DNA of 44,269 nucleotides. Origin: a virus. The number at the start of each line of letters is the position of its first letter. The first letter of the stretch is position 1. This document shows, piece after piece, positions 4,696-44,269 of the stretch. The notes beneath the pieces were generated by a model. It saw only the letters and a program-made list of their open reading frames with translations. It was not told the origin of the DNA and ran no database searches. The stretch is from positions 1-44,269 of the IMG/VR virus record IMGVR_UViG_3300047509_000381; one strand, written 5' to 3'. Position numbers and translations under genes: made by a program.

Positions 4696-4708
4696 AAAGA
4701 TTCCCCCT
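4693..4708 (-). promoter_or_regulatory. prfB-like programmed +1 ribosomal frameshift site
   Basis: Read on the minus strand the site is AGG GGG AAT CTT TGA C. In bacterial prfB (release factor 2) the signal is an internal Shine-Dalgarno AGGGGG, three spacer bases, then CTT TGA C, where peptidyl-tRNA-Leu slips from CUU to UUU. The match here is exact in the Shine-Dalgarno-like element, the 3-nt spacing, the slip codon, the weak UGA and the following C. It forms the last five sense codons and stop of the 808-codon frame, and the +1 frame is open for 405 codons. Confidence 0.85.
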
Positions 4709-7120
4709 CGGACGGTCAGCAGAGCCGCCGCCCATGCCGCCCAATCCCACGTTGAAATCGGCGGGGCTGTTCGCGCCGCGCACGTTCCTCAGGCTCGGCT
4801 CGCCGGCAACATCCGCCGCGTCCGCGCCCAGCTTGTCAGCCGCGCCCAGTGGGTTCCTATTTCCGCCATCTCCGGCGTACGTGAGGAGCGCCAGGATGCT
4901 TTTTTGTATGGTGGGGTTCTTCAATGCGTAAGTGCCACCCTCCAACGCGACGATTTCCCCGATATCGGCAGGCAGCTTGTCGTAATCTCCATAGACGAAA
5001 TCCTTGACCGCTTTGAGCGCCGGCACGCCAGCGGGGCCGTGGCGCAATAATCCGGACAGCAACTGCGACCCAGGCGTTTGCAGCTTCTGCAACCGCGCCT
5101 TCATGGCATCGAGTTGCGCGGTTTTGGTGGCGAGGCTGTCGCCTGGGCCAGCATCACCCGTCCGCACTTCGGCGGCGAATTTCAAGTCGGCAGCAACGTC
5201 GTCTATCTTGCTGCCCCAGATTTGTGCGCGGACTTCCTCGGGAATTTTGAAAAAGTTGGCGGTGAACTTGTCGAAATCAAGGTTCCTTGTTCCGCTGGTG
5301 AAATCCGAGGACTTGTTCAGAAGCTGCTCGTACATCTCGCTCTCGACTCCGGCCATGTTCGTTGAGCCCACGCGGGCGAGCAATCCGCGCAAAGTCTGCA
5401 CGTTGTCGCCCACGGTATCGCGGCTCATCAATAGTTTTGCCACGCCATCGAGGTCTTTATTCCGCAGCGCGGAGATCACGGAGTTGTCCTGCAATTTCCC
5501 GATGGTCACGCCGTAGTCCGTGCGCATGTCCGAGAGACCCTTGGCAATATCCGGCGCTCCCCCCTTGGTGGCCGCGTCCTCCAAGGATTGCCCGACTGCG
5601 GCTTTCAGATCGCTAAACACACGCTTCGTCGGATCTCCGAAATCGGTGATGCTGTACGCCTTGTTGCCGAGCGTCTTCTGAAGCTCGACGGCTTGCGACC
5701 ACGACATAGGCTCGCCCTTCGCCAACTCTTCCAAGATGGGCTGCACCTTTTCCATCAGCGGAACGGAGCCTTTTAATGCGTCTTGAATTCCGCTCGGCAG
5801 AGTCGAACCTTTTCCGATGATCTCTTGAGCTTTTTGGGCGATTGCGGAATCTTGCCCGCCGACCATGATTCCTTTTGCGGTCGCTTGCTGCGAGAATTCG
5901 TCGAGCTTCGCGCCGTAATCGGTCCCCAATTTCGCCTGCACCGCGTCGAGGTCGCCTTGGACGCCCTTGACCAATGCCTGCCCTCTCAACCCTTCGCTCA
6001 GTGGGCTCGGGGCGCCCGTCTTGGCAGCGGCAATGGCCTTCTCAGCGTCGCCTGGCTGGCCGAACTCGTCGTGGAACGGGATCGATTGGCCTTTTTCGGC
6101 GGCCGCTTTTCCGAGTTGACTGACCTCATCTATTTCTCCTTGGTGCGCCGCGATGCCGGTCTCGGCCTTGGTGATGCGGTCGGCGAGGCCGAGCTTGTCG
6201 AACAGTTTGCCCATCACCGTTTTGGCGAATGGTGCGACGGCTTCGATGGTTCCGGCAGTGGCGGCGGTGATTCCGCCCGTGATGGCGCCCGACTCGGCGG
6301 CCTGCCCTGGCGTGGGCGGTGCGGCGGCCGTTGAATCCGGAACAAGCGACTTCTCATTGGTTCCGCTGCCTTCTGCCTGCAGCGTCCCCTGCACGGCGCC
6401 GACAGCGCCGACGCGCATCGAGTTCATCCCGATGTTCAGCATGCGCGCGATTCTCGGGCTGGACTTCGCCATGTTCGCGATCTTTTGCGCGTAGCCCAAT
6501 TTCTCGGCGAAAGACAGCCCTTTTACAGCCTCATCGCCCGCCATGAACTCAAAAATGTTTTCGGCGAGGCCCCCGATGTGCATTGCCACGCCTTCTTGCT
6601 CCGTCTCGCCGCCGTCGAACAATCCTGTGCCTTTGTCGTTCGACAAATAATGCGGGACGGGGGCGCCTGTGGCGGCGTAGAGCCTGCCGATTCCTTGCCC
6701 TGTCGCGCCAGCGGACCTGACGAACCCTTCTCCCAAATTGTCGATCACGCCTGGAGGAGTGAAGGTCTTGCCTTGCCGCGTGAGCGCATGCCGTGCAGCG
6801 ACGGCGTCGGGAGTCTGATCTGGAGGAACGAGTTTCCCTCCGGCTTTCAGCGCCGCATCGACTTGGTCATGCGGTATCACGCCCTGCGAGCCGTCCGGCG
6901 CGGTCATCCATGTTCCGGTTTTTCCGCCCGCCTTGATGGCGTCGGCGACTTTGCTTTGCGGCACGGTCCCTGTTTCGCCTTGCGGCGAAAGCATGGTCAC
7001 CATCGGCTCAGGGTCGGGAGAAGATCCCGCTGGTGGAGCGGGAGGCTGCAACGACGCCGGAACCGGCATCGGAGAGATCGGCTGTTGTGCTGGAATTGGG
7101 CTGGCGTTGGCTTCTGGCAT
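4694..7120 (-). CDS. Internal-virion-type protein, 808 aa (zero frame of the fusion)
   Basis: The product has a Pro-rich N-terminus, then two tandem repeats of about 28 residues (about 43-100), each of the form G-x-V/I-P-x3-V-x2-A-x-K-A-G-G-K. Next comes a long Ala/Gly-rich helical region with a weakly hydrophobic segment near 270-310. This composition and position, following a 651-aa Ala-rich protein and behind the tail gene, fit the ejection/internal-core proteins of podoviruses, which leave the head and cross the cell envelope. Its ATG at 7120 directly follows the stop of the upstream gene, so translation is coupled. It ends at the prfB-like recoding site, so both an 808-aa and an approximately 1213-aa product are expected. 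Confidence 0.75.
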   Translation of the reverse strand: MPEANASPIPAQQPISPMPVPASLQPPAPPAGSSPDPEPMVTMLSPQGETGTVPQSKVADAIKAGGKTGTWMTAPDGSQGVIPHDQVDAALKAGGKLVPPDQTPDAVAARHALTRQGKTFTPPGVIDNLGEGFVRSAGATGQGIGRLYAATGAPVPHYLSNDKGTGLFDGGETEQEGVAMHIGGLAENIFEFMAGDEAVKGLSFAEKLGYAQKIANMAKSSPRIARMLNIGMNSMRVGAVGAVQGTLQAEGSGTNEKSLVPDSTAAAPPTPGQAAESGAITGGITAATAGTIEAVAPFAKTVMGKLFDKLGLADRITKAETGIAAHQGEIDEVSQLGKAAAEKGQSIPFHDEFGQPGDAEKAIAAAKTGAPSPLSEGLRGQALVKGVQGDLDAVQAKLGTDYGAKLDEFSQQATAKGIMVGGQDSAIAQKAQEIIGKGSTLPSGIQDALKGSVPLMEKVQPILEELAKGEPMSWSQAVELQKTLGNKAYSITDFGDPTKRVFSDLKAAVGQSLEDAATKGGAPDIAKGLSDMRTDYGVTIGKLQDNSVISALRNKDLDGVAKLLMSRDTVGDNVQTLRGLLARVGSTNMAGVESEMYEQLLNKSSDFTSGTRNLDFDKFTANFFKIPEEVRAQIWGSKIDDVAADLKFAAEVRTGDAGPGDSLATKTAQLDAMKARLQKLQTPGSQLLSGLLRHGPAGVPALKAVKDFVYGDYDKLPADIGEIVALEGGTYALKNPTIQKSILALLTYAGDGGNRNPLGAADKLGADAADVAGEPSLRNVRGANSPADFNVGLGGMGGGSADRPRGNL

Positions 7121-22656: not shown

Positions 22657-23598
22657 TTAATTCTGCTGGGGAACCCTGCCCAAGCTGACTTGGGTGTTCC
22701 ACCATTCTTGTTGTTCCCTAGTGGGCAGCTTCATCGCTTCATTCAGCTCGGCTTGGGTCACTTGCGCGACCGGCGCCCGCTGGCGCGTACCCGATTCACC
22801 CCCTGTTCCGAACAAACCGGAAGAGCTACGGGGCTTTTTGGGAGGAGGAGGCGTTTTCGGCGCTTCCTGTACAATAATGGGCGCCGAAGTTGCATTTTCG
22901 GGCGCCAGGTCCAAAGTTTCCTCTTCCACGCACCGCTGGTAGGCCCTTTCGATGGCTGATTTCGGGCTCAAATCAGGGTTTTCGCCCTTGACCATCCAAA
23001 TCTCGGCGGCCAAGAGCTTCATGTTTCTTTTGTTTGGCAAATATTCACCGTGCTCCGATTTGAACTGGTCGGTCGCGGCCTGCCAAGCTGCCGCTTCGGC
23101 ATCTGCGGCCTGCTTTTTCAGGTCTGCGGGCCGGATTCCACGCTTCTCCAACGCGCGGTCGATGTAGCCGCTGCGGTCGAGGTATTCGTCCACCGCTTCG
23201 ACCTTGCCGGACGACAATTTCACCCCAAGATCGAACAATTCGTCGGGTGTCAGCGGCGCGGGCTTCACTTCGGGGGTCGCAGCGACTTCTTCCTTCACTT
23301 TTTCAGCGACTGCGGCGACCGTCTGTTGCACCAGTTCTGCCTTTTGCGCGACTTCGGCTTCATCAACGCCGGTGATCGTCACGAATTTACCTGGCGCGAC
23401 CTCGACTTCCTGCCGGAATTCGACCGTGGCGGCCTCCGCTGGCGGCGCGTCGGCGCGGGTGACAAACTGGCCGCGCTCATTACGCGGAGCGGCGGTAGGA
23501 TCGACACCGGTTTTCGCGGCCTCTTCTCCAATCAACCGATTGGCGCCTGTGATATCTCCAGCATTAAGCATCTGTTCCAATTGTTCTTGCGGTGTCAT
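22657..23598 (-). CDS. Scaffolding protein, 313 aa
   Basis: The highly charged, helical product is rich in Glu, Ala, Lys and Pro and directly precedes the major capsid gene. It has a coiled-coil-like centre (V-D-E-A-E-V-A-Q-K-A-E-L-V-Q-Q and V-A-E-K-V-K-E-E-V-A, about 75-105). A Pro/Ser-rich hinge (about 245-275) precedes a short basic/aromatic C-terminal segment (E-Q-Q-E-W-W-N-T-Q), the kind of tail that binds capsid in other scaffolds. Scaffolds guide procapsid assembly and leave before packaging. Position and composition support the call; no specific domain was identified. Confidence 0.75.
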   Translation of the reverse strand: MTPQEQLEQMLNAGDITGANRLIGEEAAKTGVDPTAAPRNERGQFVTRADAPPAEAATVEFRQEVEVAPGKFVTITGVDEAEVAQKAELVQQTVAAVAEKVKEEVAATPEVKPAPLTPDELFDLGVKLSSGKVEAVDEYLDRSGYIDRALEKRGIRPADLKKQAADAEAAAWQAATDQFKSEHGEYLPNKRNMKLLAAEIWMVKGENPDLSPKSAIERAYQRCVEEETLDLAPENATSAPIIVQEAPKTPPPPKKPRSSSGLFGTGGESGTRQRAPVAQVTQAELNEAMKLPTREQQEWWNTQVSLGRVPQQN

Positions 23599-33234: not shown

Positions 33235-33337
33235 AGAACGGGGCGACGCATGATGTGTGGGTGAACGCTTGTTCGGAGGCCGCCCCGTTCTTGCAGGCGA
33301 CGCACTATGTCAGGGTGTCGGACACCTTTCGGTCGCC
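33235..33337 (+). repeat. Stem-loop array F (2 units)
   Basis: Unit 1 has arms 33235-33245 and 33281-33291 (11 bp, AGAACGGGGCG). A 30-nt apical part (33248-33277) carries T-G-G-G-T-G at its positions 11-16. Unit 2 has arms 33296-33301 and 33332-33337 (GGCGAC/GTCGCC) with an exactly 30-nt loop carrying A-G-G-G-T-G at positions 11-16. The units are 4 bp apart and share architecture, but not stem sequence, with the arrays at 39.2-42.6 kb. Confidence 0.8.
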
Positions 33338-33372
33338 ATCACAACTTAGATGCCAACTCCAGCCGCACCCAC

Positions 33373-33669
33373 CTACTTGGGAGCTTTCCCGCCCAATATC
33401 TCAGGTAAACTTCCCGCGAGTCCCGCCAGGCCACCCCGCAGGTCCGCAGGAAGCTGTGATTCAGTAATCGACTTGGAGCGCGTCTCGTCGATAGCTCCGA
33501 TGAAAGAAAGACCCTCGGTAGCTAGAATAAATTCTTGCCCGACCCTTAGCCCTATTTGCTGACTGTCCGGCAGATTGAGTTGAATGTTTCCGTATTCTCC
33601 CGCAAGTTGCACAAGCAGTTTACCAGTGGTAACTGTCGTGACGGCCTTGACCGCGAATTTCATTTTCAT
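33373..33669 (-). CDS. Hypothetical small beta protein, 98 aa
   Basis: GGAGAGGGAATTT precedes the ATG at 33669. Residues 1-60 are alternating beta strands (F-A-V-K-A-V-T-T-V-T-T-G-K-L-L-V-Q-L, then N-I-Q-L-N-L-P). The C-terminal 40 are Gly/Leu/Pro-rich. No family is recognised. It lies between the iteron cluster and stem-loop array F. Confidence 0.55.
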   Translation of the reverse strand: MKMKFAVKAVTTVTTGKLLVQLAGEYGNIQLNLPDSQQIGLRVGQEFILATEGLSFIGAIDETRSKSITESQLPADLRGGLAGLAGSLPEILGGKAPK

Positions 33670-33989
33670 AAATTCCCTCTCCTACCAGACTGTACATCAA
33701 TTTTCGGGGAGTATCCCTCGTGTGTCAACTCCGCCGGAAAGGTTGGGGCTGTATCCTCGCTTCGCGCCCACGGTTCCGGCGAGGGAAAGAAGTGTCACCA
33801 GAAGTGTCACCAAATGGGGTGGTGACACTTCTTTTTGGCGTAAGTCCAACGTTCGCAAGACCTTCGCCAAGTGTCACCAATTTTCCCTATAAATGTGCTA
33901 AAAAATATCCCATTTTATCGATACTAATAATGAGGTTTAGCTGGGCTTTTCCGATGCAGTGCATAGATAAGGTGACATGGTGACACTTC
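33670..33989. other. Candidate replication origin: iterons plus AT-rich stretch
   Basis: Non-coding DNA between the primase/helicase gene and the 98-aa gene. It contains at least five copies of GAAGTGTCACCA or its complement. A 55-nt AT-rich block (about 33880-33945) lies between copies four and five. Closely spaced iterons flanking an AT-rich unwinding region and adjacent to a replicative primase/helicase are the usual signs of an origin, although an operator cluster is an alternative. A separate 8-bp inverted repeat lies at 33732-33739 and 33774-33781. Confidence 0.6.
33789..33989. repeat. 12-bp iterons GAAGTGTCACCA
   Basis: Exact copies lie at 33789-33800 and 33801-33812 (tandem, plus strand), and at 33820-33831 and 33978-33989 (minus strand). 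An 11-bp match lies at 33869-33879 (plus), and a partial GGTGACAT at 33971-33978. The first and third copies face each other as an inverted pair. Confidence 0.9.
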
Positions 33990-36131
33990 TCATTCCCCGC
34001 CTATGAGCATGATCATTTTCGTCGCCCGCCCTTCGCCCACAGTGGCGCTCCCGAACTCGATCACCTCCCGCGACTTGAGGCTCAGCAGCACCCGCTGCAA
34101 CGTTGCCGACCCATAACGATCAAGATGATGCTTCCGGCTGAACGCGCGGAAACTGATAGGCACGTCCACGCCGACTTCCTCCAGCCCCCGCAAAACGGTC
34201 TGGGTGCACCTCGCCTCCAGCGAGTTCTCAGCGATGCCAGGGCGGTAGCGGCGCCGCAGCCGTTGTTGGTATTCCGCGAGCATTAGCCCGAGGCTCATAT
34301 CATCCTTCGTCACCGGCGAAGTCCAAACGTCATCCGCCCTCACCCCAGGTATCTCGCTCCGCCCAGCGGTGAGCCGGTCGGCCTTGCGGTTTTCTGCGCT
34401 GCAGATGAGGATGGCCGCCCGCAATCCCAATTCCCCGAGGTTCTTCCGTTCCTTCAGGTCTTCCTGCATCCAATCCGTTTTCATTTGCGCCACATTGTCC
34501 GGCAGCGAAATGCTGGACTGCGGGCGCAGCTCCACAGGATCCGCCACCCAGTTGTCGCGGCCCACCCAATTGTCGGGTCCGTCAGCGAAAAGCATCCTGC
34601 GAAAGAACCCGTTGATTGTGGACTTGCCGAACAGCTCTGCGAACTCCGCTGGCGAATCCACCGTCAACCCCATCAGCAAGCTGACCTTCGCGTAGCAGCG
34701 CATTTCATGCTGCCCGACTTTCTTGCCGTAATGCGACTGGTAAAAGAGTTGATTGAACGCATAGCACAGGCCGGAATTTTCAATGTTATTTTTCGACAAT
34801 AAATTTGCGCCCTCGTCCTGATATAAGAGCGTCGCCTTTGGGACGCGCAATTCCTCGGTGAGGTCCGCGACTTTCACCCCGCCCAACACCAGCAGGAGGC
34901 TGTTGTCGCTTATGATCAGATCGTCGCGCACGGCTTCGCGGTCGTTGTAGATGAAAGTTTCCCTCGCCCGCTGCGCGACCAGGCTCTTGCCGCCGCCCGA
35001 TTCCGCAAGGTTCGTACAAAAAATATTAGTCGGCAGGCTCCCGACGTAGGGCACGCCCTGGCCCGCGTAATACGCGAGCGCGGAAAGGAAGCTCCATGCC
35101 GGAGGCCCTTCGAACGTGCGCGCCACTTTCCCAAGTTTGCAGTCCATGAGATCCCTCGGGAAAGGGATCTCATTGCCCGCATACACGCGCGATTCCGTTT
35201 TCACATTTGGGGCTTCTGGCTCTTCCGTCGCCGGCTTCTCCATTGCCGCCTGCGCGGCGGTCCCGTCCACGTTGCCGCGCGGCTTCGTCCATTCCGAGAT
35301 ATCTGGCGGCGCTTCCACGGCGGCGCGGAAATCCTCCCACACGAAATGCAGGCATGAGTGATGCTGGCATTTGAAATCCAGTCCCAGATGGTCGGCCACC
35401 AGTATCGCGGCGCTCGAATCATTGCCGGTTCCAAGCGTGTGGTTGTGCTCGTTGAAACACCGCACATACATCTTGTATCCACGCTGCTCTTCCGGCGCCA
35501 CGTAGTCCAGCCAGCCGCTGCGCGTTTCCCACGGATTCGCCGCCAGGAACCCGTCAACATATTCCCGCTGCTCTGTGGCGAAACCCTCGGTTTTGAATTC
35601 CGCGACAGGCCGCTCCTTGCCCTTCGTTTCACGCGAGCCGAGGTATTCAACCAGCCAATCCGGCGCCTGAACTATTGGCATCCCGTTCGATTTGTATTCT
35701 TTCCCGCTCGGATGGATGCTTCCTGCCGCCACCACATAGCGGTTATTGACCTGCCACTGCCCGCGCCCTTTTATGGCGCCGTTCTTCATTTTGCGGCTGG
35801 CGTCGGTCTGTAGGAAATAATAATGGAACGCGCCCCCGCCGACGCGGCCGCTTTCGACGATCAATGTCATCGGCATCTTGTGGCCGGTGTCGCGCTCAAT
35901 CTCCAGAATCAGCTCGATGCAATCCACGTCGAGCATCCAGACGGTTTCGTATTTTGCGATGCACCCGCAGTTGTCGTCTGGATGGGCTTGGCTCCATTCC
36001 AGTATCTGCGTTTCGCTTGCCATCTCCATTTTTTGGAAGTTCTTCCAGTAGGCGTCCTTGCTTCGGACTTCCAACGGTATCACGTGGATGCCTAGCCTTA
36101 GCATCGGCAATGCGCGTTCTGCGAAATTCAC
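33990..36131 (-). CDS. Bifunctional primase-polymerase / helicase-like ATPase, 713 aa
   Basis: The N-terminal prim-pol (archaeo-eukaryotic primase) domain shows catalytic L-D-V-D (67-70), S-G-R-V-G-G-G-A-F-H-Y-Y-F (94-106) with H103, and A-A-G-S-I-H-P-S-G (135-143). A Cys/His-rich linker (C225, C255, H257, C260, H262) probably binds zinc. The ATPase half has Walker A E-S-G-G-G-K-S (377-383) and Walker B L-L-Y-Q-D-E (435-440), as in DUF3987-type helicase domains. The start is GTG at 36131. It would prime and unwind phage DNA. The iteron cluster lies directly behind it, and the polymerase genes lie on the other side of a divergent promoter region. Confidence 0.82.
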   Translation of the reverse strand: MNFAERALPMLRLGIHVIPLEVRSKDAYWKNFQKMEMASETQILEWSQAHPDDNCGCIAKYETVWMLDVDCIELILEIERDTGHKMPMTLIVESGRVGGGAFHYYFLQTDASRKMKNGAIKGRGQWQVNNRYVVAAGSIHPSGKEYKSNGMPIVQAPDWLVEYLGSRETKGKERPVAEFKTEGFATEQREYVDGFLAANPWETRSGWLDYVAPEEQRGYKMYVRCFNEHNHTLGTGNDSSAAILVADHLGLDFKCQHHSCLHFVWEDFRAAVEAPPDISEWTKPRGNVDGTAAQAAMEKPATEEPEAPNVKTESRVYAGNEIPFPRDLMDCKLGKVARTFEGPPAWSFLSALAYYAGQGVPYVGSLPTNIFCTNLAESGGGKSLVAQRARETFIYNDREAVRDDLIISDNSLLLVLGGVKVADLTEELRVPKATLLYQDEGANLLSKNNIENSGLCYAFNQLFYQSHYGKKVGQHEMRCYAKVSLLMGLTVDSPAEFAELFGKSTINGFFRRMLFADGPDNWVGRDNWVADPVELRPQSSISLPDNVAQMKTDWMQEDLKERKNLGELGLRAAILICSAENRKADRLTAGRSEIPGVRADDVWTSPVTKDDMSLGLMLAEYQQRLRRRYRPGIAENSLEARCTQTVLRGLEEVGVDVPISFRAFSRKHHLDRYGSATLQRVLLSLKSREVIEFGSATVGEGRATKMIMLIGGE

Positions 36132-36534
36132 TCTTATTGTCCTTACGGGCGAGACTGGTCGGCGGAAACTTGCCGCGCCTCACGGTCGCCCGTTGGAGCG
36201 GGCGAGCACTGTCGTAATACTCTGCGGCGTCCCCGAATTCGTTTTCGGAATCGGAAAACTGTACTTCGGTACAGGCAAAGGCCGCGCGGAAAACCTGTAC
36301 GAAATAGTTTAAAAAACATTCAGAAAATTCCTCGGCACTTTGCGGGCACGCAGTATTTGGTTTGCAGAGCGCGTCCAAGAAGCCCCCGCACTTCGGTGCA
36401 CCAGGGTGATTTGGGCCGGAGGCTCACTGCGAAAGTGGTGAGTCTCCCTCACGGAGACCTCTTTCGTGCAGACACTCTCGTGAGCGCGGAGATTGGTCCC
36501 GCCCGCATGACAACTAAACGACCTAGAGAAACGT
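36132..36534. other. Divergent promoter region between primase and SSB/polymerase genes
   Basis: No well-supported gene lies here. Promoters for both directions must lie in it. It contains the palindrome at 36259-36274, an 8-bp inverted repeat at 36145-36152/36186-36193, and several smaller hairpins between 36341 and 36484. One of these (36341-36347 with 36382-36390) resembles the phage's stem-loop units but has a 34-nt loop and a bulge. A 12-codon leader-type ORF runs from 36508 across the start of the next gene. Confidence 0.5.
36259..36274. promoter_or_regulatory. Palindrome CTGTAC-TTCG-GTACAG
   Basis: A perfect 16-bp inverted repeat in the divergent intergenic region. As DNA it fits CTGT-N8-ACAG, the spacing of the Escherichia coli LexA operator. 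As RNA on the plus strand it is a 6-bp stem closed by a stable UUCG tetraloop. Either reading is possible. Confidence 0.55.
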
Positions 36535-37284
36535 ATGCCCTTTGAAATTCCAGATGATGATTTGAACGCAGATGATTTGAAATCAGCAGTTCCGCCGCAG
36601 TTCAACACAGCGCCAAAACCAAACGGGAAAACGACGGGGAAAGTTCCTTCCACGCCGCCCGTGAACCCAACAGCAAAAAACCCCGTCATCAAATGGGGAG
36701 ACAGCCGAATCCAAGCTGGCGATGGCCTGCTTCGCCTCAAGAGCACGACGGAGCGCGCCCTGCGTTTCACGCTGGTTCCTGGCGTGGACCCTGTCAGCAA
36801 CCTCACCCATTACGTCGCGGTGGGCCAGAAAAAAGGGATGTTTGTTTGCCCTGGCGAGGCGGGATGCGTGCTTTGCCCCCGCGAATACGCCAAGTGGAAC
36901 ACCGTGGTTCTGGTCGCCGGTTACAACAACGCTGACGCCGCTGGGAAGCTGGCTGCGGGCGTGAAGCCGGAATACACCATCGGTTACATTTCCCTCTCTC
37001 CGACACATTTCAAGACCTTGTCGGACGCCACCGAAACTGCCGGGGTTTTTGATATCGATTGGATTCAAACCTCGGATGGCAAGCGTTTCAATTACCGCGC
37101 CATGACCTCCTCGCGTTACCGCCAGGCAGGTGATGAAGCGGCCCTCATCAAGCTCGCGCAGCCTTTCATCGCGCGCCTGAACGGCAAAGTGGGACGGACC
37201 ATCTCCGCGCTCGATCTGAAGGCCATGGTAGCCGGTGGCCCTACGATTGAGAGCGGGCTGGGGTCGCCGGAGGACGACGAGTAA
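36535..37284 (+). CDS. Probable single-stranded DNA-binding protein, 249 aa
   Basis: After a disordered 45-residue acidic/Pro-rich N-terminus, the product has a beta-rich central domain with K-K-G-M-F-V-C-P-G-E-A-G-C-V-L-C (about 99-114). This is a Cys cluster like the zinc site in T4-type SSBs. It is followed by W-N-T-V-V-L-V-A-G-Y-N, strand segments and an acidic C-terminus ending E-D-D-E, as in SSBs that recruit partners through an acidic tail. It is the first gene of a two-gene unit with DNA polymerase, only the stop codon separating them. Function inferred from these traits. Confidence 0.6.
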   Translation: MPFEIPDDDLNADDLKSAVPPQFNTAPKPNGKTTGKVPSTPPVNPTAKNPVIKWGDSRIQAGDGLLRLKSTTERALRFTLVPGVDPVSNLTHYVAVGQKKGMFVCPGEAGCVLCPREYAKWNTVVLVAGYNNADAAGKLAAGVKPEYTIGYISLSPTHFKTLSDATETAGVFDIDWIQTSDGKRFNYRAMTSSRYRQAGDEAALIKLAQPFIARLNGKVGRTISALDLKAMVAGGPTIESGLGSPEDDE

Positions 37285-39225
37285 GTGCTGCTCCATATAG
37301 ATGTTGAGACCCTCAGTGAGGCCGACCTTAAAAAAGTCGGCCTTGCTGCCTATGCCGCCCATCCTTCGACAAAAATAATAATGTTGGCTTACGCCACGGA
37401 CGACGGCCCAGTCCAGCAGTGGCAGGCGCACCAAGGCCCGATGCCCGATGATCTGCAGGCGATGCTGCTGAACCCCGCGATCACCAAGATTGGATGGAAC
37501 GTGACATTCGAGCGAGCGTTGCTCGCTTCCACCCTCGGGATAGTCCTTCCGCTCAAATCCTGTTTCGATACCATGTGCCACAGCCGGTATCTCGGCTACC
37601 CCGGCGCGCTCGACGCCGCCAGCCGCGTGTTGGGCTTGGGTGACGCGGGAAAAATGAAAGAAGGAAAGCAGCTCATGAAGCTGTTTTCCATCTTGACCAA
37701 GGCCACCGAGAAAAAACCGGCGCACTTCAAGAATCATGAAACGAATCCCGTCGAATGGGAAACCTATCTCCAGTACAACCGCCAGGACGTTTCCGCCGAG
37801 CGCGCCTGCGCGCACCGGCTCAATGAGATCGGCGAATTCCCCGCGTCCGAATACCAAGTCTGGATTCTCGACCAGCTCATAAACAATCGCGGCCTGACAC
37901 TCGATGAAACATTCATCGCGAATGCCCGCCGCCTCACGAAAGGCGAAGTCGAGGAGATTGTCCAAAAGATCAAAGCGATCACCAGCGTCGCCAATCCCAA
38001 CAGCGGCCAGCAGATGCGAAAGTGGTTCGCGGCGCAAAGCTACGCCATGAAGAGCCTCGACAAGCCCCACGTGGAGGCCGCGCTGAACGACGCGAAGTTG
38101 CCGGCTCCGTGCCGCGAAGTGTTTTTGCTTAAGCAGCGCCAGGGCGGGAGCGCCAGCTCGAAGCTTGTGTCCATCGCCGAGCGCGCCCACGGCGGTCGGC
38201 TCCAGGGCCAATTTGTTTATTTTGGCGCGCACACGGGCCGTTGGGCGAGTTGGGGCGTCAACATTCAAAATTTGCTGCGCCCCACGCCGAGGGTGAAAAA
38301 ATTGACGGCCGAAATCACCAACGCGATTCTGTGCGGCGACGACCTCGGCATGCTGGGAATTCCCGTGGTGGAAGCGGTCAGCGGCGTCCTGCGGAGCTGC
38401 TTCCGCGCGCCGTCCGGCAGCCGGTATCTCATCAGCGATTTGGCTCAAGTTGAAAATCGCGTTCTGTCTTGGTTTTCCAACTGCGTGAACATGCTCAAGA
38501 TTTACGAGGATGGCAGATGCGCGTACAAGACTTTCGCGTGCCTGATGTACAACAAGCTTTACGACGAGATCACCGCCGACGAGCGGCAGCGCGCCAAGGC
38601 GCCGGTATTGGGCTGCGGCTTCGGCATGGGTTCCAAGCGCCTCGCGGCCTACGCGCGCAACATGGGCATTGATATGAGCGAGGAAGAGGCGCAGGTCTAT
38701 GTCGAATTGTTCCGCGCAACGTATCCCGAGATTCCGGATTTTTGGTACAACCTGGGCGCGGCGGCGATGCAAGCGGTGCAGGATTTTTGCGTCTTGCGGT
38801 TGGGAAAGCTGCGCATCGACGGATCTCAGCCGGAGATGCTGAGAATCATTCTCCCGTCTGGCCGCGCGCTCCATTACGTGAAGCCGATGGTGATCGAGGA
38901 CCCTGATTGGGCCGGAAAGTCCATCCTGGTTTACGAAGGCATGGGCAAGGCTTGGGGAGTTGTAAAAACTCGCGGCGCGAAAATTGTCGAAAATGTTGTG
39001 CAGGCGGCGAGCAGGGATTTGCTGGTGAACGCCATGATGCGCGCCCATAAATTGGGGTATCCCCTCGTTTTGCATTGTCATGACGAACTGGTTGCCCAGC
39101 TCGCGCATTCATCGCCGCTCACGTTGGAAGGTTTCAATTCTTGCATGACCGATGTTCCCGCGTGGGCCACCGGATTGCCCATCGGAGCCGAGGGATTTGA
39201 ATCCGAATTCTACCGGAAAAACTAG
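37285..39225 (+). CDS. Family A DNA polymerase with 3'-5' exonuclease, 646 aa
   Basis: The N-terminal exonuclease has I-D-V-E-T-L (5-10), N-V-T-F-E-R (72-77, Glu in place of the usual Asp) and Y-N-R-Q-D (164-168). The polymerase part has T-G-R-W-A-S (317-322), motif A D-L-A-Q-V-E-N-R-V-L-S-W-F (385-397), motif B R-x2-K-x4-G-x2-F-G-M-G (435-449) and motif C H-C-H-D-E (597-601). T7-like polymerases of this size replicate the phage genome. Motif A reads E-N-R instead of the usual E-L-R. The start is GTG, next to the stop of the SSB-like gene. A long stem-loop begins at its stop codon. Confidence 0.93.
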   Translation: MLLHIDVETLSEADLKKVGLAAYAAHPSTKIIMLAYATDDGPVQQWQAHQGPMPDDLQAMLLNPAITKIGWNVTFERALLASTLGIVLPLKSCFDTMCHSRYLGYPGALDAASRVLGLGDAGKMKEGKQLMKLFSILTKATEKKPAHFKNHETNPVEWETYLQYNRQDVSAERACAHRLNEIGEFPASEYQVWILDQLINNRGLTLDETFIANARRLTKGEVEEIVQKIKAITSVANPNSGQQMRKWFAAQSYAMKSLDKPHVEAALNDAKLPAPCREVFLLKQRQGGSASSKLVSIAERAHGGRLQGQFVYFGAHTGRWASWGVNIQNLLRPTPRVKKLTAEITNAILCGDDLGMLGIPVVEAVSGVLRSCFRAPSGSRYLISDLAQVENRVLSWFSNCVNMLKIYEDGRCAYKTFACLMYNKLYDEITADERQRAKAPVLGCGFGMGSKRLAAYARNMGIDMSEEEAQVYVELFRATYPEIPDFWYNLGAAAMQAVQDFCVLRLGKLRIDGSQPEMLRIILPSGRALHYVKPMVIEDPDWAGKSILVYEGMGKAWGVVKTRGAKIVENVVQAASRDLLVNAMMRAHKLGYPLVLHCHDELVAQLAHSSPLTLEGFNSCMTDVPAWATGLPIGAEGFESEFYRKN

Positions 39226-39327
39226 CTGGGGCGACGCCATCAACATGGTCGTCGGGGCCAAAATGGTCGCCCCAGCTTTTATCTGGCGACGCGAGCGAAT
39301 TGGGTGGCGTACGGGCCACAGTCGCCA
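39224..39327 (+). repeat. Stem-loop array C (2 units)
   Basis: Unit 1 has perfect 12-bp arms 39224-39235/39266-39277 (AGCTGGGGCGAC) and a 30-nt loop with T-G-G-T-C-G at positions 11-16. A T-run follows, so it may also terminate the polymerase unit. Unit 2 has arms 39284-39290/39321-39327 (TGGCGAC/GTCGCCA) and a 30-nt loop with T-G-G-G-T-G at positions 11-16. Confidence 0.85.
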
Positions 39328-39333
39328 AACTCA

Positions 39334-39624
39334 TCAGTTCTCAACCTCCACAGTGGCGCCCTTCGAGCGGTCCATCGTCCTGCACACTTCGCGGTATTCT
39401 TTGTCCTGGTAGCTTTTGCGGTTCAAATACACTCGGTACCTTGTATTGGTTGCCGGGTCGGTGAAGCCGATTGCTCGGTTGTCGGACGGCGCGTGGCCGC
39501 AGGGCATGTCGAATTTAGACAACCCGAAGAACACGCTGCCGTTGGCCGTTCCCCCGACAGCGTTTCTCACGAACGCCTGGGTGTCGGCGGTCGCCTCGGC
39601 ATAAATGATTTCAACGTATTTCAT
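39334..39624 (-). CDS. Hypothetical early protein, 96 aa
   Basis: A strong AAAGGAG lies 5 nt before the ATG. The product is mixed alpha/beta with M-K-Y-V-E-I-I-Y-A-E-A at the start and R-Y-R-V-Y-L-N-R-K-S-Y-Q-D-K-E-Y near the end. No family is recognised. It is framed by stem-loop array C at its 3' side and array B at its 5' side. Confidence 0.6.
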   Translation of the reverse strand: MKYVEIIYAEATADTQAFVRNAVGGTANGSVFFGLSKFDMPCGHAPSDNRAIGFTDPATNTRYRVYLNRKSYQDKEYREVCRTMDRSKGATVEVEN

Positions 39625-39644
39625 AATTCTCCTTTTGAAAACCA

Positions 39645-40047
39645 GGCGCGGACGTTGCTTAAACGGTTGTGCAAGTCCACAACGGCCCGCGCCCAGCTAT
39701 TGGCGGCGAGACTGCGTGGGGTGACACGGGCATCCTGGCCGCCAAACATTTTTGGTGGGCGGCGAATAAGCATTGGGTGATACTCCCACGGTGGCCGCCC
39801 ACCTTTTTGCGGCGCGCCCACATTGGTGTGACAGATGAACGAGAGCCGCAAAATCTCGGGGCGGCGATTTTTTCCGGCCGCCCCTTTTTGCGAGCGCAGC
39901 AGCACCATGGTTGTCGCCACTCCCGTGGCGCCCGCAAAATCCTGGGACGGCGATGTTGTCGAGGTTGAATTATCCACTTGAAGGCCGTCCCCCTTTCCGA
40001 GCTGCGGCCGCCCCTCGGGAGTCGCCTTCAAGTTGGCAGCTCGAAAA
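39645..40047 (+). repeat. Stem-loop array B (8 back-to-back hairpins)
   Basis: Arms are 39645-39651/39686-39692, 39699-39706/39738-39745, 39754-39763/39794-39803, 39805-39813/39845-39853, 39858-39865/39877-39884, 39886-39897/39928-39939, 39944-39951/39984-39991 and 39998-40005/40036-40043. The first has a 34-nt loop that shrinks to about 30 nt with one extra pair, and its core C-G-G-T-T-G starts one or two places off. Six more have loops of 30-32 nt with a G-rich core (such as T-G-G-G-T-G, T-G-G-T-T-G, A-G-G-T-T-G or C-G-G-G-A-G) beginning at loop position 11. The fifth is a short hairpin with an 11-nt loop and T-run. Gaps are 1-8 bp. Stems differ between units but remain paired. Confidence 0.88.
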
Positions 40048-40158
40048 TTTCTCGCATCGGCAAAACCGCAGTTTCGCCACGTCCGAATATCCTGTGCACG
40101 AACGATCGTGGTGATGAAGATTCCGCTCATGGCCGCACGCGCAGATTTCTTTTGTCAT
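39970..40158 (-). CDS. Small zinc-binding protein, 62 aa
   Basis: The product begins M-T-K-E-I-C-A-C-G-H-E-R-N-L-H-H-H and continues with C-T-G-Y and C-R-C-E-K-F. This is the C-x-C-G-H-x4-H ... C ... C-x-C-x2-F pattern of a widespread small zinc protein of phages and bacteria. The recognisable part ends near residue 40; the remaining Gly/Arg/Ala tail is encoded by stem-loop units of array B and may be a non-conserved run-on. An alternative start is the ATG at 40170. Function unknown. Confidence 0.55.
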   Translation of the reverse strand: MTKEICACGHERNLHHHDRSCTGYSDVAKLRFCRCEKFSSCQLEGDSRGAAAARKGGRPSSG

Positions 40159-40178
40159 GTTCTGTCTCATAAAAATTT

Positions 40179-40373
40179 AGGGGCGGCCCCGGCTGGTAGG
40201 GGCGTCACTTCCGTTATGGGCCGCCCCTTTTCTCCACCGCGCTTCCACTCCGGATGATTACAAATACTCTGGCAGCGGAAATTTGTTCGGGGCGGCGCCC
40301 GCCGATTGGTCGGACACGCATTTATAGGCCCGCCCCCTGGCGCGTGACGAAGGAGAACGGACGCCACGCGCCA
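40179..40373 (+). repeat. Stem-loop array D (2 clear, 2 atypical units)
   Basis: Unit 1 has arms 40179-40188/40219-40228 (AGGGGCGGCC) and a 30-nt loop with G-G-G-G-C-G at positions 11-16. Unit 3 has arms 40289-40296/40328-40336 with one bulge, a 31-nt loop and T-G-G-T-C-G. Between them, about 40237-40278, lies a degenerate unit with a 4-bp stem but C-G-G-A-T-G at the expected place. The last hairpin (40338-40346/40365-40373) has a 9-bp stem and an 18-nt loop. Confidence 0.7.
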
Positions 40374-40378
40374 AACTC

Positions 40379-40984
40379 TCAAAACTCCTTCAATATCTCG
40401 GACTCCAGCGTCCGCAGCGTCTGGATGATGAATTCCGGCCCCGCGCCGCATGGCCGCCAACGCAAGAGCCTGACTTTCCCATCCTCAATGAACGCCCTGG
40501 CGATATCCGAAAGGTTTTGCGATTTCAGGTCGATGATGCGCTGCGCCCCTTCGCCGGTGCTGACGACGGTGGGCATCGAAATCCGCGCGCCGCTCTGCAA
40601 GGTGATCGGCACTCTTGTGAACGTGAAGATTAGGTTGCATGCCTGGCGAAGCAGTCCCGAGAAATAGTTACTCGCGGTATCGTAATTTAATGCTCTTCCG
40701 TGATTCGCGCTGAGATCCCACGCGATGAACGACAAGCTGTCATCCAGGCGCTCGACGCCATCAACGACGATGCTCTGCGCCGATGTTTTTAGCGCGAGGA
40801 ATTCTCCGACGAGCGCCGGAGGATTCTGCAACGCGACCATCTCTGCGGCGATAAGGTCCATCGCTGTTTGTCGCGTTGCCGGCGCCTTGCCTTCTGCGAT
40901 CCAGCGTTTCCATTCGGCCACGCACGCTATCGCGTACGCCCGCCTGGTGAATCTCTTAGGTTGCGGTGTGGGCAGTGAAGCCAT
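40379..40984 (-). CDS. Hypothetical early protein, 201 aa
   Basis: CAAGGAGAAAAG precedes the ATG. The N-terminal 60 residues are basic and helical (R-F-T-R-R-A-Y-A-I-A-C-V-A-E-W-K-R-W). The middle has beta segments (S-I-V-V-D-G-V-E-R-L-D-D-S-L-S-F-I-A-W-D) and a helix L-L-R-Q-A-C-N-L-I-F-T-F. No motif is recognised. It lies between stem-loop arrays D (3' side) and A (5' side). A replication or host-takeover role is only a guess from position. Confidence 0.55.
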   Translation of the reverse strand: MASLPTPQPKRFTRRAYAIACVAEWKRWIAEGKAPATRQTAMDLIAAEMVALQNPPALVGEFLALKTSAQSIVVDGVERLDDSLSFIAWDLSANHGRALNYDTASNYFSGLLRQACNLIFTFTRVPITLQSGARISMPTVVSTGEGAQRIIDLKSQNLSDIARAFIEDGKVRLLRWRPCGAGPEFIIQTLRTLESEILKEF

Positions 40985-41011
40985 TCTTTCTTTTCTCCTT
41001 GACTAAATTTG

Positions 41012-41219
41012 TGGGGCAGGTGTCCCCTCACAGGTTGTCAAGTCGGTCCCGACCTGCCCCATTGTCGCGCGAACATACTCAGGGTGACGCGAGTGGTTCG
41101 GCGCGAAACTTTTGGGAGCGTTCGTCGGGCTCGCAATGGATGTCGCGCCGCCGATGGGCGCTCCCTTGTTTTTGGCGACGCTGACTTCATGGGTGCCAGG
41201 CTCTGATCAGTCGCCAAAA
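41012..41219 (+). repeat. Stem-loop array A (4 units), between the 201-aa and IS110-like genes
   Basis: Unit 1 arms are 41012-41021/41052-41061 (TGGGGCAGGT, loop 30, core A-G-G-T-T-G). Unit 2 arms are 41065-41070/41101-41106 (TCGCGC, loop 30, core A-G-G-G-T-G). Unit 3 outer arms are 41114-41120/41159-41165 (GGGAGCG); extra inner pairing leaves a 30-nt loop with core T-G-G-A-T-G. Unit 4 arms are 41170-41179/41210-41219 (TTTTGGCGAC, loop 30, core T-G-G-G-T-G). The array begins 28 nt upstream of the 201-aa start and ends 8 nt from the IS110-like stop. Confidence 0.88.
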
Positions 41220-41227
41220 TTCCACGA

Positions 41228-42211
41228 TCAAGCCGCCGCGCTCCGTGAAATTCGCTTCTCTCCACGCATCCGCGTCCACCAGGCGCACAAAGCGTCCTTT
41301 ATCACCCGCCGTCGCGCCCGAGCGTTGCAATGCGTCTCAGTCAGTTCTGGGTGCTTAGCAATAATTTGCTCGCGGTAGAAGTCGTAAGCGGGCCGCCATT
41401 TCGGGTTTTTCACTTTCAGCATGCTGTCGCACCAGAGCCACCAGGCCGTTCTCAACGTCGGACTATAATGGAGCGATTCTCCGCGAGTCCTTTTTTCAGT
41501 TTTTCCGCCGACGACCGCGAAACCGCTGAACCTCCAAAGTTTCGCCACGGTCGCGAATTTTTCGGCGCCGCCCGTGAGGCCCACGACCGTGCTCGACGTG
41601 CCCCAGCTCTTGTCGGATATCGCGAGGATTTCATTCAAAATCACGCACTCCGGAATTGCTTTTGCGCGCCGCCCGATCTCTTTCTCCAAGGGCGATTCGA
41701 ATCTTTTGATATCTTCGCGGTGCTCGATCTCGGCCGCGCGCAACCATTCCGGCCGGTTCGGGTCGTCGTCCGTGTAGCCCATGGCGCGCGTCGATTCTGT
41801 TATCTTTTGCCCGCACGAAACACGGAAGTGCATGATGGCCTCGCGCAACTGCACCAGGGAGCGAAGCTCCATCAAGTCCTTGCGGAAAGTTACGACGCGG
41901 AACAATTCTGCGGGCAACGCGGCATACGCGGCGACGGCTTCTTCCGGCCCCAACCCTTTCTTGATTCCAAGATCGTGAAAGTGCCTATAAACTAGGACGA
42001 CGCCGTGAGATTGCAATTCCAGCAGCAGCGGGCCGAACGTTCCCAGGCTTGTTAGTCGCACTGTGCAATTGGGATTCAACGAGTTAATCCATTTGGAAAT
42101 TCCCGTGCCGGCGAGTTTCTGCGGCGGATTCGTTCCTTCACAAATGTAATAGATCGGGTCGCCGCCCCTTGGCCCCGAGAATGTCCGGTGTAAAACAAAG
42201 GTTTTAGTCAT
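41228..42211 (-). CDS. IS110-family-like transposase protein, 327 aa
   Basis: The ATG at 42211 overlaps the stop of the 91-aa gene (ATGA). Residues about 50-135 correspond to the end of the IS110 RuvC-like domain: L-x2-L-G-T-F-G-P-L-L-L-E-L, H-G-V-V-L-V-Y, K-K-G-L-G-P-E-E-A-V-A-A-Y-A and E-L-R-S-L-V-Q-L-R. Residues about 190-315 match its Transposase_20 part: I-L-A-I-S-D-K-S-W-G-T, F-A-T-V-A-K-L-W-R-F-S-G-F, Y-S-P-T-L-R-T-A-W and H-C-N-A-R-A-R-R-R. The E of the usual E-A-T/S-G motif and the T-D-x2-D-A acidic pair are not seen, so catalysis may be lost or divergent. It lies in a phage early operon bracketed by stem-loop arrays A and E, and no insertion-sequence ends are evident. Confidence 0.62.
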   Translation of the reverse strand: MTKTFVLHRTFSGPRGGDPIYYICEGTNPPQKLAGTGISKWINSLNPNCTVRLTSLGTFGPLLLELQSHGVVLVYRHFHDLGIKKGLGPEEAVAAYAALPAELFRVVTFRKDLMELRSLVQLREAIMHFRVSCGQKITESTRAMGYTDDDPNRPEWLRAAEIEHREDIKRFESPLEKEIGRRAKAIPECVILNEILAISDKSWGTSSTVVGLTGGAEKFATVAKLWRFSGFAVVGGKTEKRTRGESLHYSPTLRTAWWLWCDSMLKVKNPKWRPAYDFYREQIIAKHPELTETHCNARARRRVIKDALCAWWTRMRGEKRISRSAAA

Positions 42212-42483
42212 GCGGACCTCCGCGACACCCAGGTTAATATCAGCTCGCCTTCCATTCGCGGATTTGCGGCAGGTGAAAACAAGGGCATCGAGTGTTCGCA
42301 CATTCGCGAGAACCATTCGGACGCGCTTAGCATGTGAATCTGTCCGCCATCGCTCTCGTCGATGATTGGGGCCGCGTCGTCCATGCATGATGGGCACGGG
42401 CAATCTGGGCCGCTCAAAAGCGGCCCCATGCTTTCGCTGACGGCGCACTTTTCAAAGATAGTCAAATCAAGGTACGCGCTCAC
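42208..42483 (-). CDS. Hypothetical early protein, 91 aa
   Basis: A GTG at 42483 with AAAGGAG 7 nt upstream opens the frame, whose stop overlaps the IS110-like start. The product carries C-P-C-P-S-C-M-D-D (about 28-36), a compact Cys motif, and a C-terminal W-F-S-R-M-C-E-H segment, so it may bind zinc. The strict coupling to the IS110-like gene suggests a joint function. No family is recognised. Confidence 0.6.
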   Translation of the reverse strand: MSAYLDLTIFEKCAVSESMGPLLSGPDCPCPSCMDDAAPIIDESDGGQIHMLSASEWFSRMCEHSMPLFSPAANPRMEGELILTWVSRRSA

Positions 42484-42506
42484 TTTTTGTTCTCCTTTAG
42501 AATTTT

Positions 42507-42609
42507 GTGGCGGCGCTCGTGCCGTTCGGGCTGTCCATATCAACCGCGGCGCCGCCCACTTTGGAGCGGGCGCTATTTCGACGCTTGAAAATTGCGGCTC
42601 GGCCCGCTC
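42507..42609 (+). repeat. Stem-loop array E (2 units) upstream of the IS110-like operon
   Basis: Unit 1 has arms 42509-42516/42549-42556 (GGCGGCGC/GCGCCGCC), extended by 2 bp past a bulge, and a 32-nt loop with core C-G-G-G-C-T-G at position 11. Unit 2 has arms 42564-42571/42602-42609 (GAGCGGGC/GCCCGCTC) and an exactly 30-nt loop with core C-G-C-T-T-G at position 11. Confidence 0.82.
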
Positions 42610-43045: not shown

Positions 43046-44269
43046 TTAGGCGCTGCGCACCATTCTCGGAATAACCTTCAAACTTGCATAGCGGTCTGTT
43101 TCACGGTTGGCAGATTCTCTGGTTTGTGAAGACTGACTGCTCAGCCAGTCGGCATAACCTTTCGTCTCGTTAATATCCGTATGCCCCGCCCATTTCGCAA
43201 CGGTGCAAATATCCTCACCATCCCGCAATTTGTTGGTGCAAAACACGTCCCTGAACCGATGCAGTTTTACTTTTTTGACAGCGGATTCCTCGACCGCTTC
43301 TTGCAGTTGGCGGAGAAGGTGACCCTCCACTTTCCCGTCGTCGGTTGGGAACAACAAACCCTTTTGTGGCAGCGCCAACAACTCCTCGATTAACGTATCG
43401 CTGATCGGAATTTCTCTGGTGCTCTCCGGCGTCTTGGGATGCCACGTGTTGTCCCGTGAGCGGCAGTTGGCGCAATCGACGCACGGCTTCTGCTCGATTG
43501 AAATTGTCATCGTGCGGCGGTCCACGTTCTCCCGGCGCAAGTGCGTGATCTCCTGCAACCTGCAACCCGTGGAGCGAAACAAGCGAATCAACAGGTTGAA
43601 AATGTATTTGTCCTTGGTGCAGGATTCCATCGCCACGATCTCCCACGGCTCGTACGGTTCCGGTGGCGGGTATTTGTTGTACTGGGGCCAGTCGGAAGCC
43701 AGCATCCCCCAGGTCTTCTTGCAGGACAAGAACGCCGGATCGACGACCCGCATCCAAGTGGAGACTGCGGCCATCATCGTGTCCACAGTTTTGTGGGCGT
43801 ACCCTTCGTCGAACATCGCGTTCTTGAATTTCAGCATGTCGTTGCGACCGAGCTGGTCCACATGAATTTTATTTTCCGCCAGCGCGGCGAAGGATTTCAA
43901 GATCCGGAATTTGTCCTTGATGGTTTTATCTGGCCGTCTGGCGAGGCGCAGGGCGGCGATGTAATTGTCGATCTCCGCCAGAATGACTTTCCGTGCGGAC
44001 GGCGGAGCGGCCCGGCGCTCGCGCTTCTCCTTGTCGATCCGCACGAGTTCCGATGCGCGGTTGATCTGGGCGTCCGGCAGGTTGTCCCCGACATAAAGCC
44101 AATCGCCGCTGTAGTTGATGTGGTACGTCCCACCGTCGTACCGGATCTCTTGCTTCTTGAATACAACGAAATTCGCCTTGGGCTTGTTGCAAGTGGGGTT
44201 GACGGCGAGCCTGCAATAGCGCGGGCCTGCGTCCATATTGCAGAGCTTGTACAGCGGGTATTTCAGCAT
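43046..44269 (-). CDS. int: Tyrosine recombinase/integrase, 407 aa (start at window edge)
   Basis: The catalytic residues of the family are all visible: R237 in S-T-G-C-R-L-Q-E-I, K279, H337-x2-R340 in K-L-H-R-F-R, H363 in W-A-G-H-T-D, and Y372 in K-G-Y-A-D. The N-terminal 80 residues include a Cys-containing arm-binding-like part. Residues about 95-185 are the SAM-like core-binding domain. An unusual three-Cys insertion C-V-D-C-A-N-C (263-269) lies in the beta region. The enzyme would integrate and, with helpers, excise the phage. The ATG is the last codon of the window, so a longer N-terminus is possible and the attachment site is not in view. Confidence 0.9.
   Translation of the reverse strand: MLKYPLYKLCNMDAGPRYCRLAVNPTCNKPKANFVVFKKQEIRYDGGTYHINYSGDWLYVGDNLPDAQINRASELVRIDKEKRERRAAPPSARKVILAEIDNYIAALRLARRPDKTIKDKFRILKSFAALAENKIHVDQLGRNDMLKFKNAMFDEGYAHKTVDTMMAAVSTWMRVVDPAFLSCKKTWGMLASDWPQYNKYPPPEPYEPWEIVAMESCTKDKYIFNLLIRLFRSTGCRLQEITHLRRENVDRRTMTISIEQKPCVDCANCRSRDNTWHPKTPESTREIPISDTLIEELLALPQKGLLFPTDDGKVEGHLLRQLQEAVEESAVKKVKLHRFRDVFCTNKLRDGEDICTVAKWAGHTDINETKGYADWLSSQSSQTRESANRETDRYASLKVIPRMVRSA

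What the first reader, a model, noticed from the sequence alone, without database searches (positions are those of the whole stretch)
33235..42609. A family of about 20 stem-loop units with fixed 30-nt loops between early genes
Nearly every gap between early genes contains palindromic units of about 50 bp. Stems are 6-12 bp and differ in sequence (AGCTGGGGCGAC, TTTTGGCGAC, GGTGGGCGGC, GAGCGGGC) yet stay complementary, which implies selection for pairing. Loops are almost always 30-32 nt with a core near N-G-G-K-Y-G at positions 11-16. All have the core on the plus strand although most flanking genes are on the minus strand. The inner stem end often reads GGCGRC/GYCGCC. I know of no described element with this form. 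It could be a structured RNA, a DNA hairpin bound by a recombinase, or a regulatory site set.
Basis: partly seen in the sequence, partly recalled or inferred. Interest (0 to 1): 0.95.

Follow-up and report, generated by a model that had tools for sequence, protein, structure and literature searches.

The report
Phage guide-RNA stem-loops (TIGR-Tas array)
The stem-loops are almost certainly guide RNAs of a TIGR-Tas system, a recently described RNA-guided DNA-binding machine of phages, and relatives in near-identical mycobacteriophages show that the guides change very fast while the hairpins around them stay fixed.

Summary
The early-gene gaps hold 11 perfect stems of at least 6 bp with a loop of exactly 30 nt; 9 carry the core. 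Dinucleotide shuffles give 0.004 (maximum 1 in 1000). Pairing covaries in every stem position. About 19 units can be called, two of them atypical.

The units form a TIGR stem-loop array (Faure et al. 2025, PMC12045711). Read on the minus strand, each is stem, box C (CCA-like), 9-nt spacer A, box D' (YG), linker, box C' (CC), 9-nt spacer B, box D, stem. The gene among them (41228-42211, minus) is a Tas protein: phmmer E=6.9e-11 to the solved TIGR-TasR chain, and Foldseek top hits TasR and TasH. DNA patterns alone led to 30-odd phage loci with the same arrays. In all 33 loci with an identified tas gene, every unit lies on the tas strand.

So the kind is known. New here: in 13-14 near-identical cluster A1 mycobacteriophages the stems are conserved and both spacers are hypervariable (array diversity 0.26 against 0.03 in flanking genes). 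In 15 of 50 Tas loci, units lie inside the tas reading frame. A second gene, phrog_4604, recurs beside tas in several lineages. No spacer targets were found.

The parts
41228..42211 (-). Tas protein gene (327 aa; ATG after GGAGG): Nop-domain / IS110-C-terminal-like RNA-binding protein with coiled coil and an N-terminal beta-rich extension of uncertain fold
   Evidence: phrog_4285 E=1.5e-13; phmmer to 9mty TIGR-TasR E=6.9e-11; AlphaFold model, Foldseek top hits TasR 1.5e-7, TasH, IS621
33235..33291 (-). stem-loop unit (31-nt loop, one mismatch in stem)
33296..33337 (-). stem-loop unit, 30-nt loop
39224..39277 (-). stem-loop unit, 30-nt loop, 12-bp stem; overlaps the polA stop codon region
39282..39329 (-). 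stem-loop unit, 30-nt loop
39640..39698 (-). stem-loop unit, 31-nt loop
39700..39745 (-). stem-loop unit, 30-nt loop
39754..39803 (-). stem-loop unit, 30-nt loop
39805..39853 (-). stem-loop unit, 31-nt loop, shifted core
39886..39939 (-). stem-loop unit, 30-nt loop
39944..39991 (-). stem-loop unit, 32-nt loop
39998..40043 (-). stem-loop unit, 30-nt loop, variant core
40179..40228 (-). stem-loop unit, 30-nt loop (alternative inner pair)
40289..40336 (-). stem-loop unit with bulge
41012..41061 (-). stem-loop unit, 30-nt loop
41065..41106 (-). stem-loop unit, 30-nt loop
41114..41165 (-). atypical longer hairpin, possible diverged unit
41170..41219 (-). stem-loop unit, 30-nt loop
42509..42556 (-). 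stem-loop unit, 32-nt loop
42564..42609 (-). stem-loop with 30-nt loop but degenerate core

Best explanation
The units are a dispersed TIGR stem-loop array and the gene at 41228-42211(-) is its Tas protein. Inferred working: the units are transcribed from the minus strand as intercistronic parts of early polycistronic mRNAs and fold into hairpins. They are cut out one by one and bound by a Tas dimer through box C/D-like motifs at the stem mouth and in the middle of the loop. Each mature RNA exposes two 9-nt spacers that act in tandem, spacer A pairing with one strand and spacer B with the other strand of one DNA site (top strand A + 0-2 nt + reverse complement of B). With no recognised nuclease the likely effect is RNA-guided DNA binding or bending (blocking transcription or replication of a competitor, or regulation) rather than cutting. 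Shown here: unit anatomy, covariation, strand rule, Tas homology and fold, guide-like spacer hypervariability in relatives. Inferred from the published systems: transcription, processing, loading, DNA targeting. Not known: the targets.
For: Unit anatomy: among 253 distinct 30-nt-loop units of Tas loci the two 9-nt stretches carry 0.01-0.16 bits per position, while positions that were not imposed by the search stay conserved: A 94% ending box C, A 86% ending box C', C 92% before the stem G; the published CCA box C recurs. Tas: phmmer of the window protein alone to 9mty E=6.9e-11; 9MTY is the TIGR-TasR structure of PMC12045711; family profile 2.9e-34 to TasR, 2.8e-21 to TasH, only 0.006 to IS621; Foldseek top 9 for the window model and top 11 for the Omega model are TasR/TasH. 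Association: loci found by DNA pattern only nearly all encode Tas, and in 33 of 33 loci every unit is on the tas strand. Guide-like variation: 14 distinct cluster A1 mycobacteriophage sequences, flanking genes pi 0.026 and 0.036, array 0.259; at two orthologous stems spacers differ by 0.58-0.69 per site. The paper describes stem-loop arrays with two 8-12 nt spacers, variable palindromes, nuclease-less TasA and separated subarrays.
Against: No expression or processing data. No target found for any spacer, so guide function rests on homology and on variability. In this window boxes C and D are looser than in relatives (CCN and YG) and some units are degenerate. Units spread over 9.4 kb, up to 8 kb from tas, wider than the published arrays. 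The N-terminal 100 residues of the window Tas were modelled poorly (pLDDT mostly below 50), so TasA versus inactive TasR is undecided. The fixed boxes C, D', C' were partly imposed by the unit search.
Confidence: 0.93

Rival explanations
1. The units are bridge-RNA-like elements of an IS110-type mobile element and the protein is a transposase.
For: phrog_4285 is annotated transposase; Omega gp21 was called IS110-like on a 2.2-kb insertion with a 5-bp target duplication (PMC3706429); IS621 is a remote structural match.
Against: TasR and TasH match far better than IS621; no Pfam match for the window protein and only marginal Transposase_20 matches (best E 0.009) in 3 of 22 relatives, no DEDD domain; many hairpins per locus instead of one two-loop bridge RNA; array and tas sit at conserved genome positions in the A1 phages.
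Confidence: 0.03
2. The units are regulatory hairpins (terminators, antiterminators or protein-binding operators) of the early operons.
For: They lie in intercistronic gaps upstream and downstream of early genes, and some stems are followed by T runs (sequence).
Against: Conserved boxes at fixed register around two zero-information 9-mers are not needed for terminators; spacers, not stems, vary between near-identical phages; Tas linkage. A secondary regulatory effect is not excluded.
Confidence: 0.03
3. DNA hairpins used by a recombinase (integron attC-like cassettes) together with the nearby integrase at 43046-44269.
For: Palindromes variable in sequence but conserved in pairing; a tyrosine integrase is near.
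Against: Many tandem units with no gene between them (L039); conserved positions are CCA/CG boxes, not attC R and L boxes; exact 30-nt loop; constant linkage to Tas across loci.
Confidence: 0.01

Closest known systems
TIGR-Tas systems with stem-loop arrays (TasA; Faure et al. 2025, PMC12045711)
   Different: Units spread over five gaps in 9.4 kb and among replication genes; boxes looser (CCN/YG); Tas has an uncertain 100-residue N-terminal extension; expression untested
TIGR dual-repeat arrays with TasR/TasH
   Same: C-spacerA-D-loop-C-spacerB-D order with 9-nt spacers; homologous protein
   Different: Edge repeats replaced by variable palindromes; no recognised nuclease
IS110 / IS621 bridge RNA recombinases
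   Same: Homologous C-terminal RNA-binding region and split-guide loop
   Different: No DEDD transposase domain found; many single-loop units instead of one bridge RNA; no element ends seen in the window
Box C/D snoRNPs (Nop5)
   Same: Box C/D-like motifs around guides; Nop fold (1nt2 is a weak Foldseek match, E 0.52)
   Different: No K-turn modelled here, DNA rather than RNA targets expected

Membership tests
TIGR-Tas, stem-loop array type | Tas protein with Nop domain encoded in the locus | tested here: met
TIGR-Tas, stem-loop array type | repeated units with variable but consistently palindromic flanks | tested here: met
[quoted passage not shown]
   two 9-nt zero-information stretches with CCA / CG-UG boxes; looser in the window itself
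TIGR-Tas, stem-loop array type | array transcribed and processed into single stem-loop RNAs bound by Tas | not testable with these tools
   only the strand rule supports co-transcription with tas
TIGR-Tas, stem-loop array type | spacers act in tandem on both strands of a DNA target | tested here: inconclusive
   no targets found; 12 units had no gapless exact site in 50,697 phage records, positive control worked
IS110 transposase with bridge RNA | N-terminal DEDD RuvC-like transposase domain | tested here: not met
   no DEDD_Tnp_IS110 Pfam match in 22 members; window N-terminus modelled poorly
Rfam families incl. skipping-rope RF02924 | match to the covariance model | tested here: not met
CRISPR array | identical direct repeats separated by single spacers | tested here: not met
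   stems differ between units and spacers are split in two
Integron attC sites | R (RYYYAAC/GTTRRRY) and L boxes in the stem | tested here: not met
   conserved positions of the units are CCA/CG only

The most novel reading that the evidence does not exclude
In these phages the guides diversify in place: stems and boxes stay fixed while both 9-mers of a unit are rewritten between otherwise near-identical phages by an unknown route (targeted mutagenesis, or exchange of short alleles under strong diversifying selection), for competition between phages. Units nested inside the tas reading frame would couple guide production to destruction of tas mRNA, a built-in feedback.
Probability: 0.3. Interest if true: 0.82.

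Novelty: new member of a known kind. Interest (0 to 1): 0.62.

Why it matters
How TIGR spacers arise and what they target are stated open questions (PMC12045711, Discussion), hard to study because most systems are known only from metagenomes. The relatives found here place stem-loop TIGR arrays in laboratory mycobacteriophages (cluster A1, Omega, Rich) and Gordonia phages, with many sequenced near-identical genomes that differ mainly in their guides. That makes guide turnover, targets and function testable in Mycobacterium smegmatis. It also suggests that many 'transposase' annotations of phrog_4285 proteins should read Tas.

Tried and rejected
Rfam at gathering and at permissive thresholds: nothing relevant; skipping-rope RF02924 checked and absent. 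Relatives by PolA or primase in viral contigs: none close. Mycobacteriophage SAS/ESAS repeats read and rejected: different motif, 4-13 bp spacer, no pairing support. Plus-strand RNA reading (boxC=CG, boxD=UG) considered and set aside because all units of 33 loci lie on the tas strand and that reading gives the published CCA box C. Target searches: all distinct spacers against 3.6 Mb of fetched loci with shuffled pairing, A1 spacers against six whole A1 genomes and Omega, 12 units against 50,697 phage records with positive control, two units in viral contigs (the hits to one unit are one unrelated gene shared by six contigs, the two to the other lie in unrelated contigs, about chance level), one unit in 118 genomes of the genus of the Mycolicibacterium locus L244: no signal. 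BLAST covered only gapless sites. Genome-contig pattern hits were mostly single chance matches.

Full report
CHECK OF THE OBSERVATION. The window is a 44,269-bp virus record. In 1.7 kb of gaps between early genes (33.1-42.8 kb), perfect stems of at least 6 bp have one outstanding loop length, exactly 30 nt. Nine of eleven carry the core .GGKYG at loop positions 11-16 on the plus strand and none on the minus strand. Dinucleotide shuffles give 0.57 such stems and 0.004 with the core. On 12 units every one of the six inner pairs has two-sided changes, with all cells paired. That alignment was chosen for pairing, so the cleaner test is motif-first on the related loci: 158 of 293 loop-motif matches on the tas strand are flanked by complementary arms at the right register, against 0 of 65 on the other strand and 0-5 at shifted registers. 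About 17 units are good and two are atypical.

FINDING RELATIVES. A pattern scan of viral contigs using only stem and core letters gave L039, a tandem array of 11 hairpins with 30-nt loops and alternating stems. Further scans gave many arrays with variable stems and loops of the form G-N9-TGGGTGNCG-N9-TG. One locus (L210) lies in a 110,865-bp record, the length recalled for mycobacteriophage Omega, and it is 97-98% identical over 72% of its length to cluster J phages. The array sits on a 2.2-kb insertion absent from phage Courthouse, which carries a gene described as IS110-like gp21. That protein is phrog_4285, and so is the window gene 41228-42448 amid the units.

IDENTITY. TIGR-Tas systems (PMC12045711) comprise a Nop-domain Tas protein and arrays of dual-spacer guides. 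[quoted passage not shown] The window protein alone matches 9mty, the TIGR-TasR structure, at E=6.9e-11. The family profile matches TasR at 2.9e-34, TasH at 2.8e-21 and IS621 only at 0.006. AlphaFold models of Omega gp21 (pLDDT 89.6) and of the window Tas (71.4) have TasR and TasH as top Foldseek hits, followed by IS110 recombinases. The window gene probably starts at 42211 (ATG after GGAGG), giving 327 aa.

ANATOMY. Loci found by DNA pattern nearly all encode this family, and in 33 of 33 loci every unit is on the tas strand (at least two pairs of loci, L362/L375 and L162/L218, carry the same array). The RNA therefore most likely reads: stem-C, CA, spacer A (9), CG, linker, CCA, spacer B (9), C, G-stem. 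In 253 distinct units the two 9-mers are information-free, whereas box positions that were not imposed stay conserved. In the window the boxes are looser, and the units lie in intercistronic gaps of minus-strand transcription units, including the convergent gap after polA.

WHAT IS NEW. (1) In 14 distinct cluster A1 phage sequences the genes on both sides differ by 2.6-3.6% while the array differs by 26%. At two orthologous stems, 13 phages hold 8-9 distinct A and 8-11 distinct B spacers that differ at about 60% of sites; random sequences would differ at 75%. Some phages share spacer A but not B at one stem, so the halves change independently. This is the behaviour expected of guides under diversifying selection, and it argues against growth of the array by adding units. 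(2) In 15 of 50 Tas loci (some redundant) units lie inside the tas reading frame, many at one insertion point in the Nop domain (alignment). (3) A gene of family phrog_4604 precedes tas in Omega, the A1 phages, Gordonia phages and three further loci.

HOW IT LIKELY WORKS. By homology, each hairpin is excised, bound by a Tas dimer, and guides it to a DNA site read on both strands. From the published cleavage rule I derive a target top strand of spacer A, 0-2 nt, reverse complement of spacer B. No nuclease domain was recognised, so binding, bending or blocking is more likely than cutting. Transcription, processing and targeting are inferred, not shown.

TARGETS. None found in own genomes, six A1 genomes and Omega, fetched loci, or, for 12 units as gapless sites, all 50,697 phage records; a positive control shows that an 18-mer would have been seen. 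Sites with gaps or mismatches in the large collections remain largely untested.

VERDICT. A real, functional-looking feature of a kind described in 2025; new member, with useful new evidence on guide evolution from culturable phages.

Noticed in passing
L383, L388, L390-L402 (cluster A1 mycobacteriophages), about 4650-4980: Orthologous stem-loops have conserved stems but nearly random spacers between phages whose neighbouring genes are 97% identical; spacers A and B vary independently.
   Followed up: yes
L045, L149, L159, L206, L275, L357, L369, L370, L385, L389, L404, L405: Guide stem-loops lie inside the tas coding frame, several at a common insertion point before the GVAPxRRxKG region, so one stretch may serve as both protein and guide code.
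   Followed up: partly
L382:7810-8340 and upstream of tas in L383, L385, L389, L404, L405, L275: A small gene of family phrog_4604 (unknown function) is repeatedly found beside tas: candidate accessory gene.
   Followed up: partly
84 phage records: Proteins annotated transposase or hypothetical (phrog_4285), 76 of them in mycobacteriophages, are better described as Tas proteins; the Omega 'transposon' looks like a TIGR cassette.
   Followed up: yes
window 33784-33985: Several copies of AGAAGTGTCACC in both orientations in a non-coding stretch next to the primase-polymerase gene: possible replication origin iterons or operators.
   Followed up: no
window 39858-39884: GGGGCGGC-11 nt-GCCGCCCC hairpin in the middle of the unit cluster with a short loop: a collapsed unit or a terminator.
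   Followed up: no
window 22678-22758: Long hairpin (19-bp arms with mismatches, 43-nt loop) between structural genes.
   Followed up: no
L251 (Sphingomonas pseudosanguinis DSM 19512): Three units on one strand in a cultured bacterium, without a tas gene detected in the 8 kb held.
   Followed up: no
L388:4714-4778 and orthologues: The second A1 unit has a 39-40 nt loop whose linker can itself form a small hairpin (e.g. GCGGCAACTCGCCGC).
   Followed up: no
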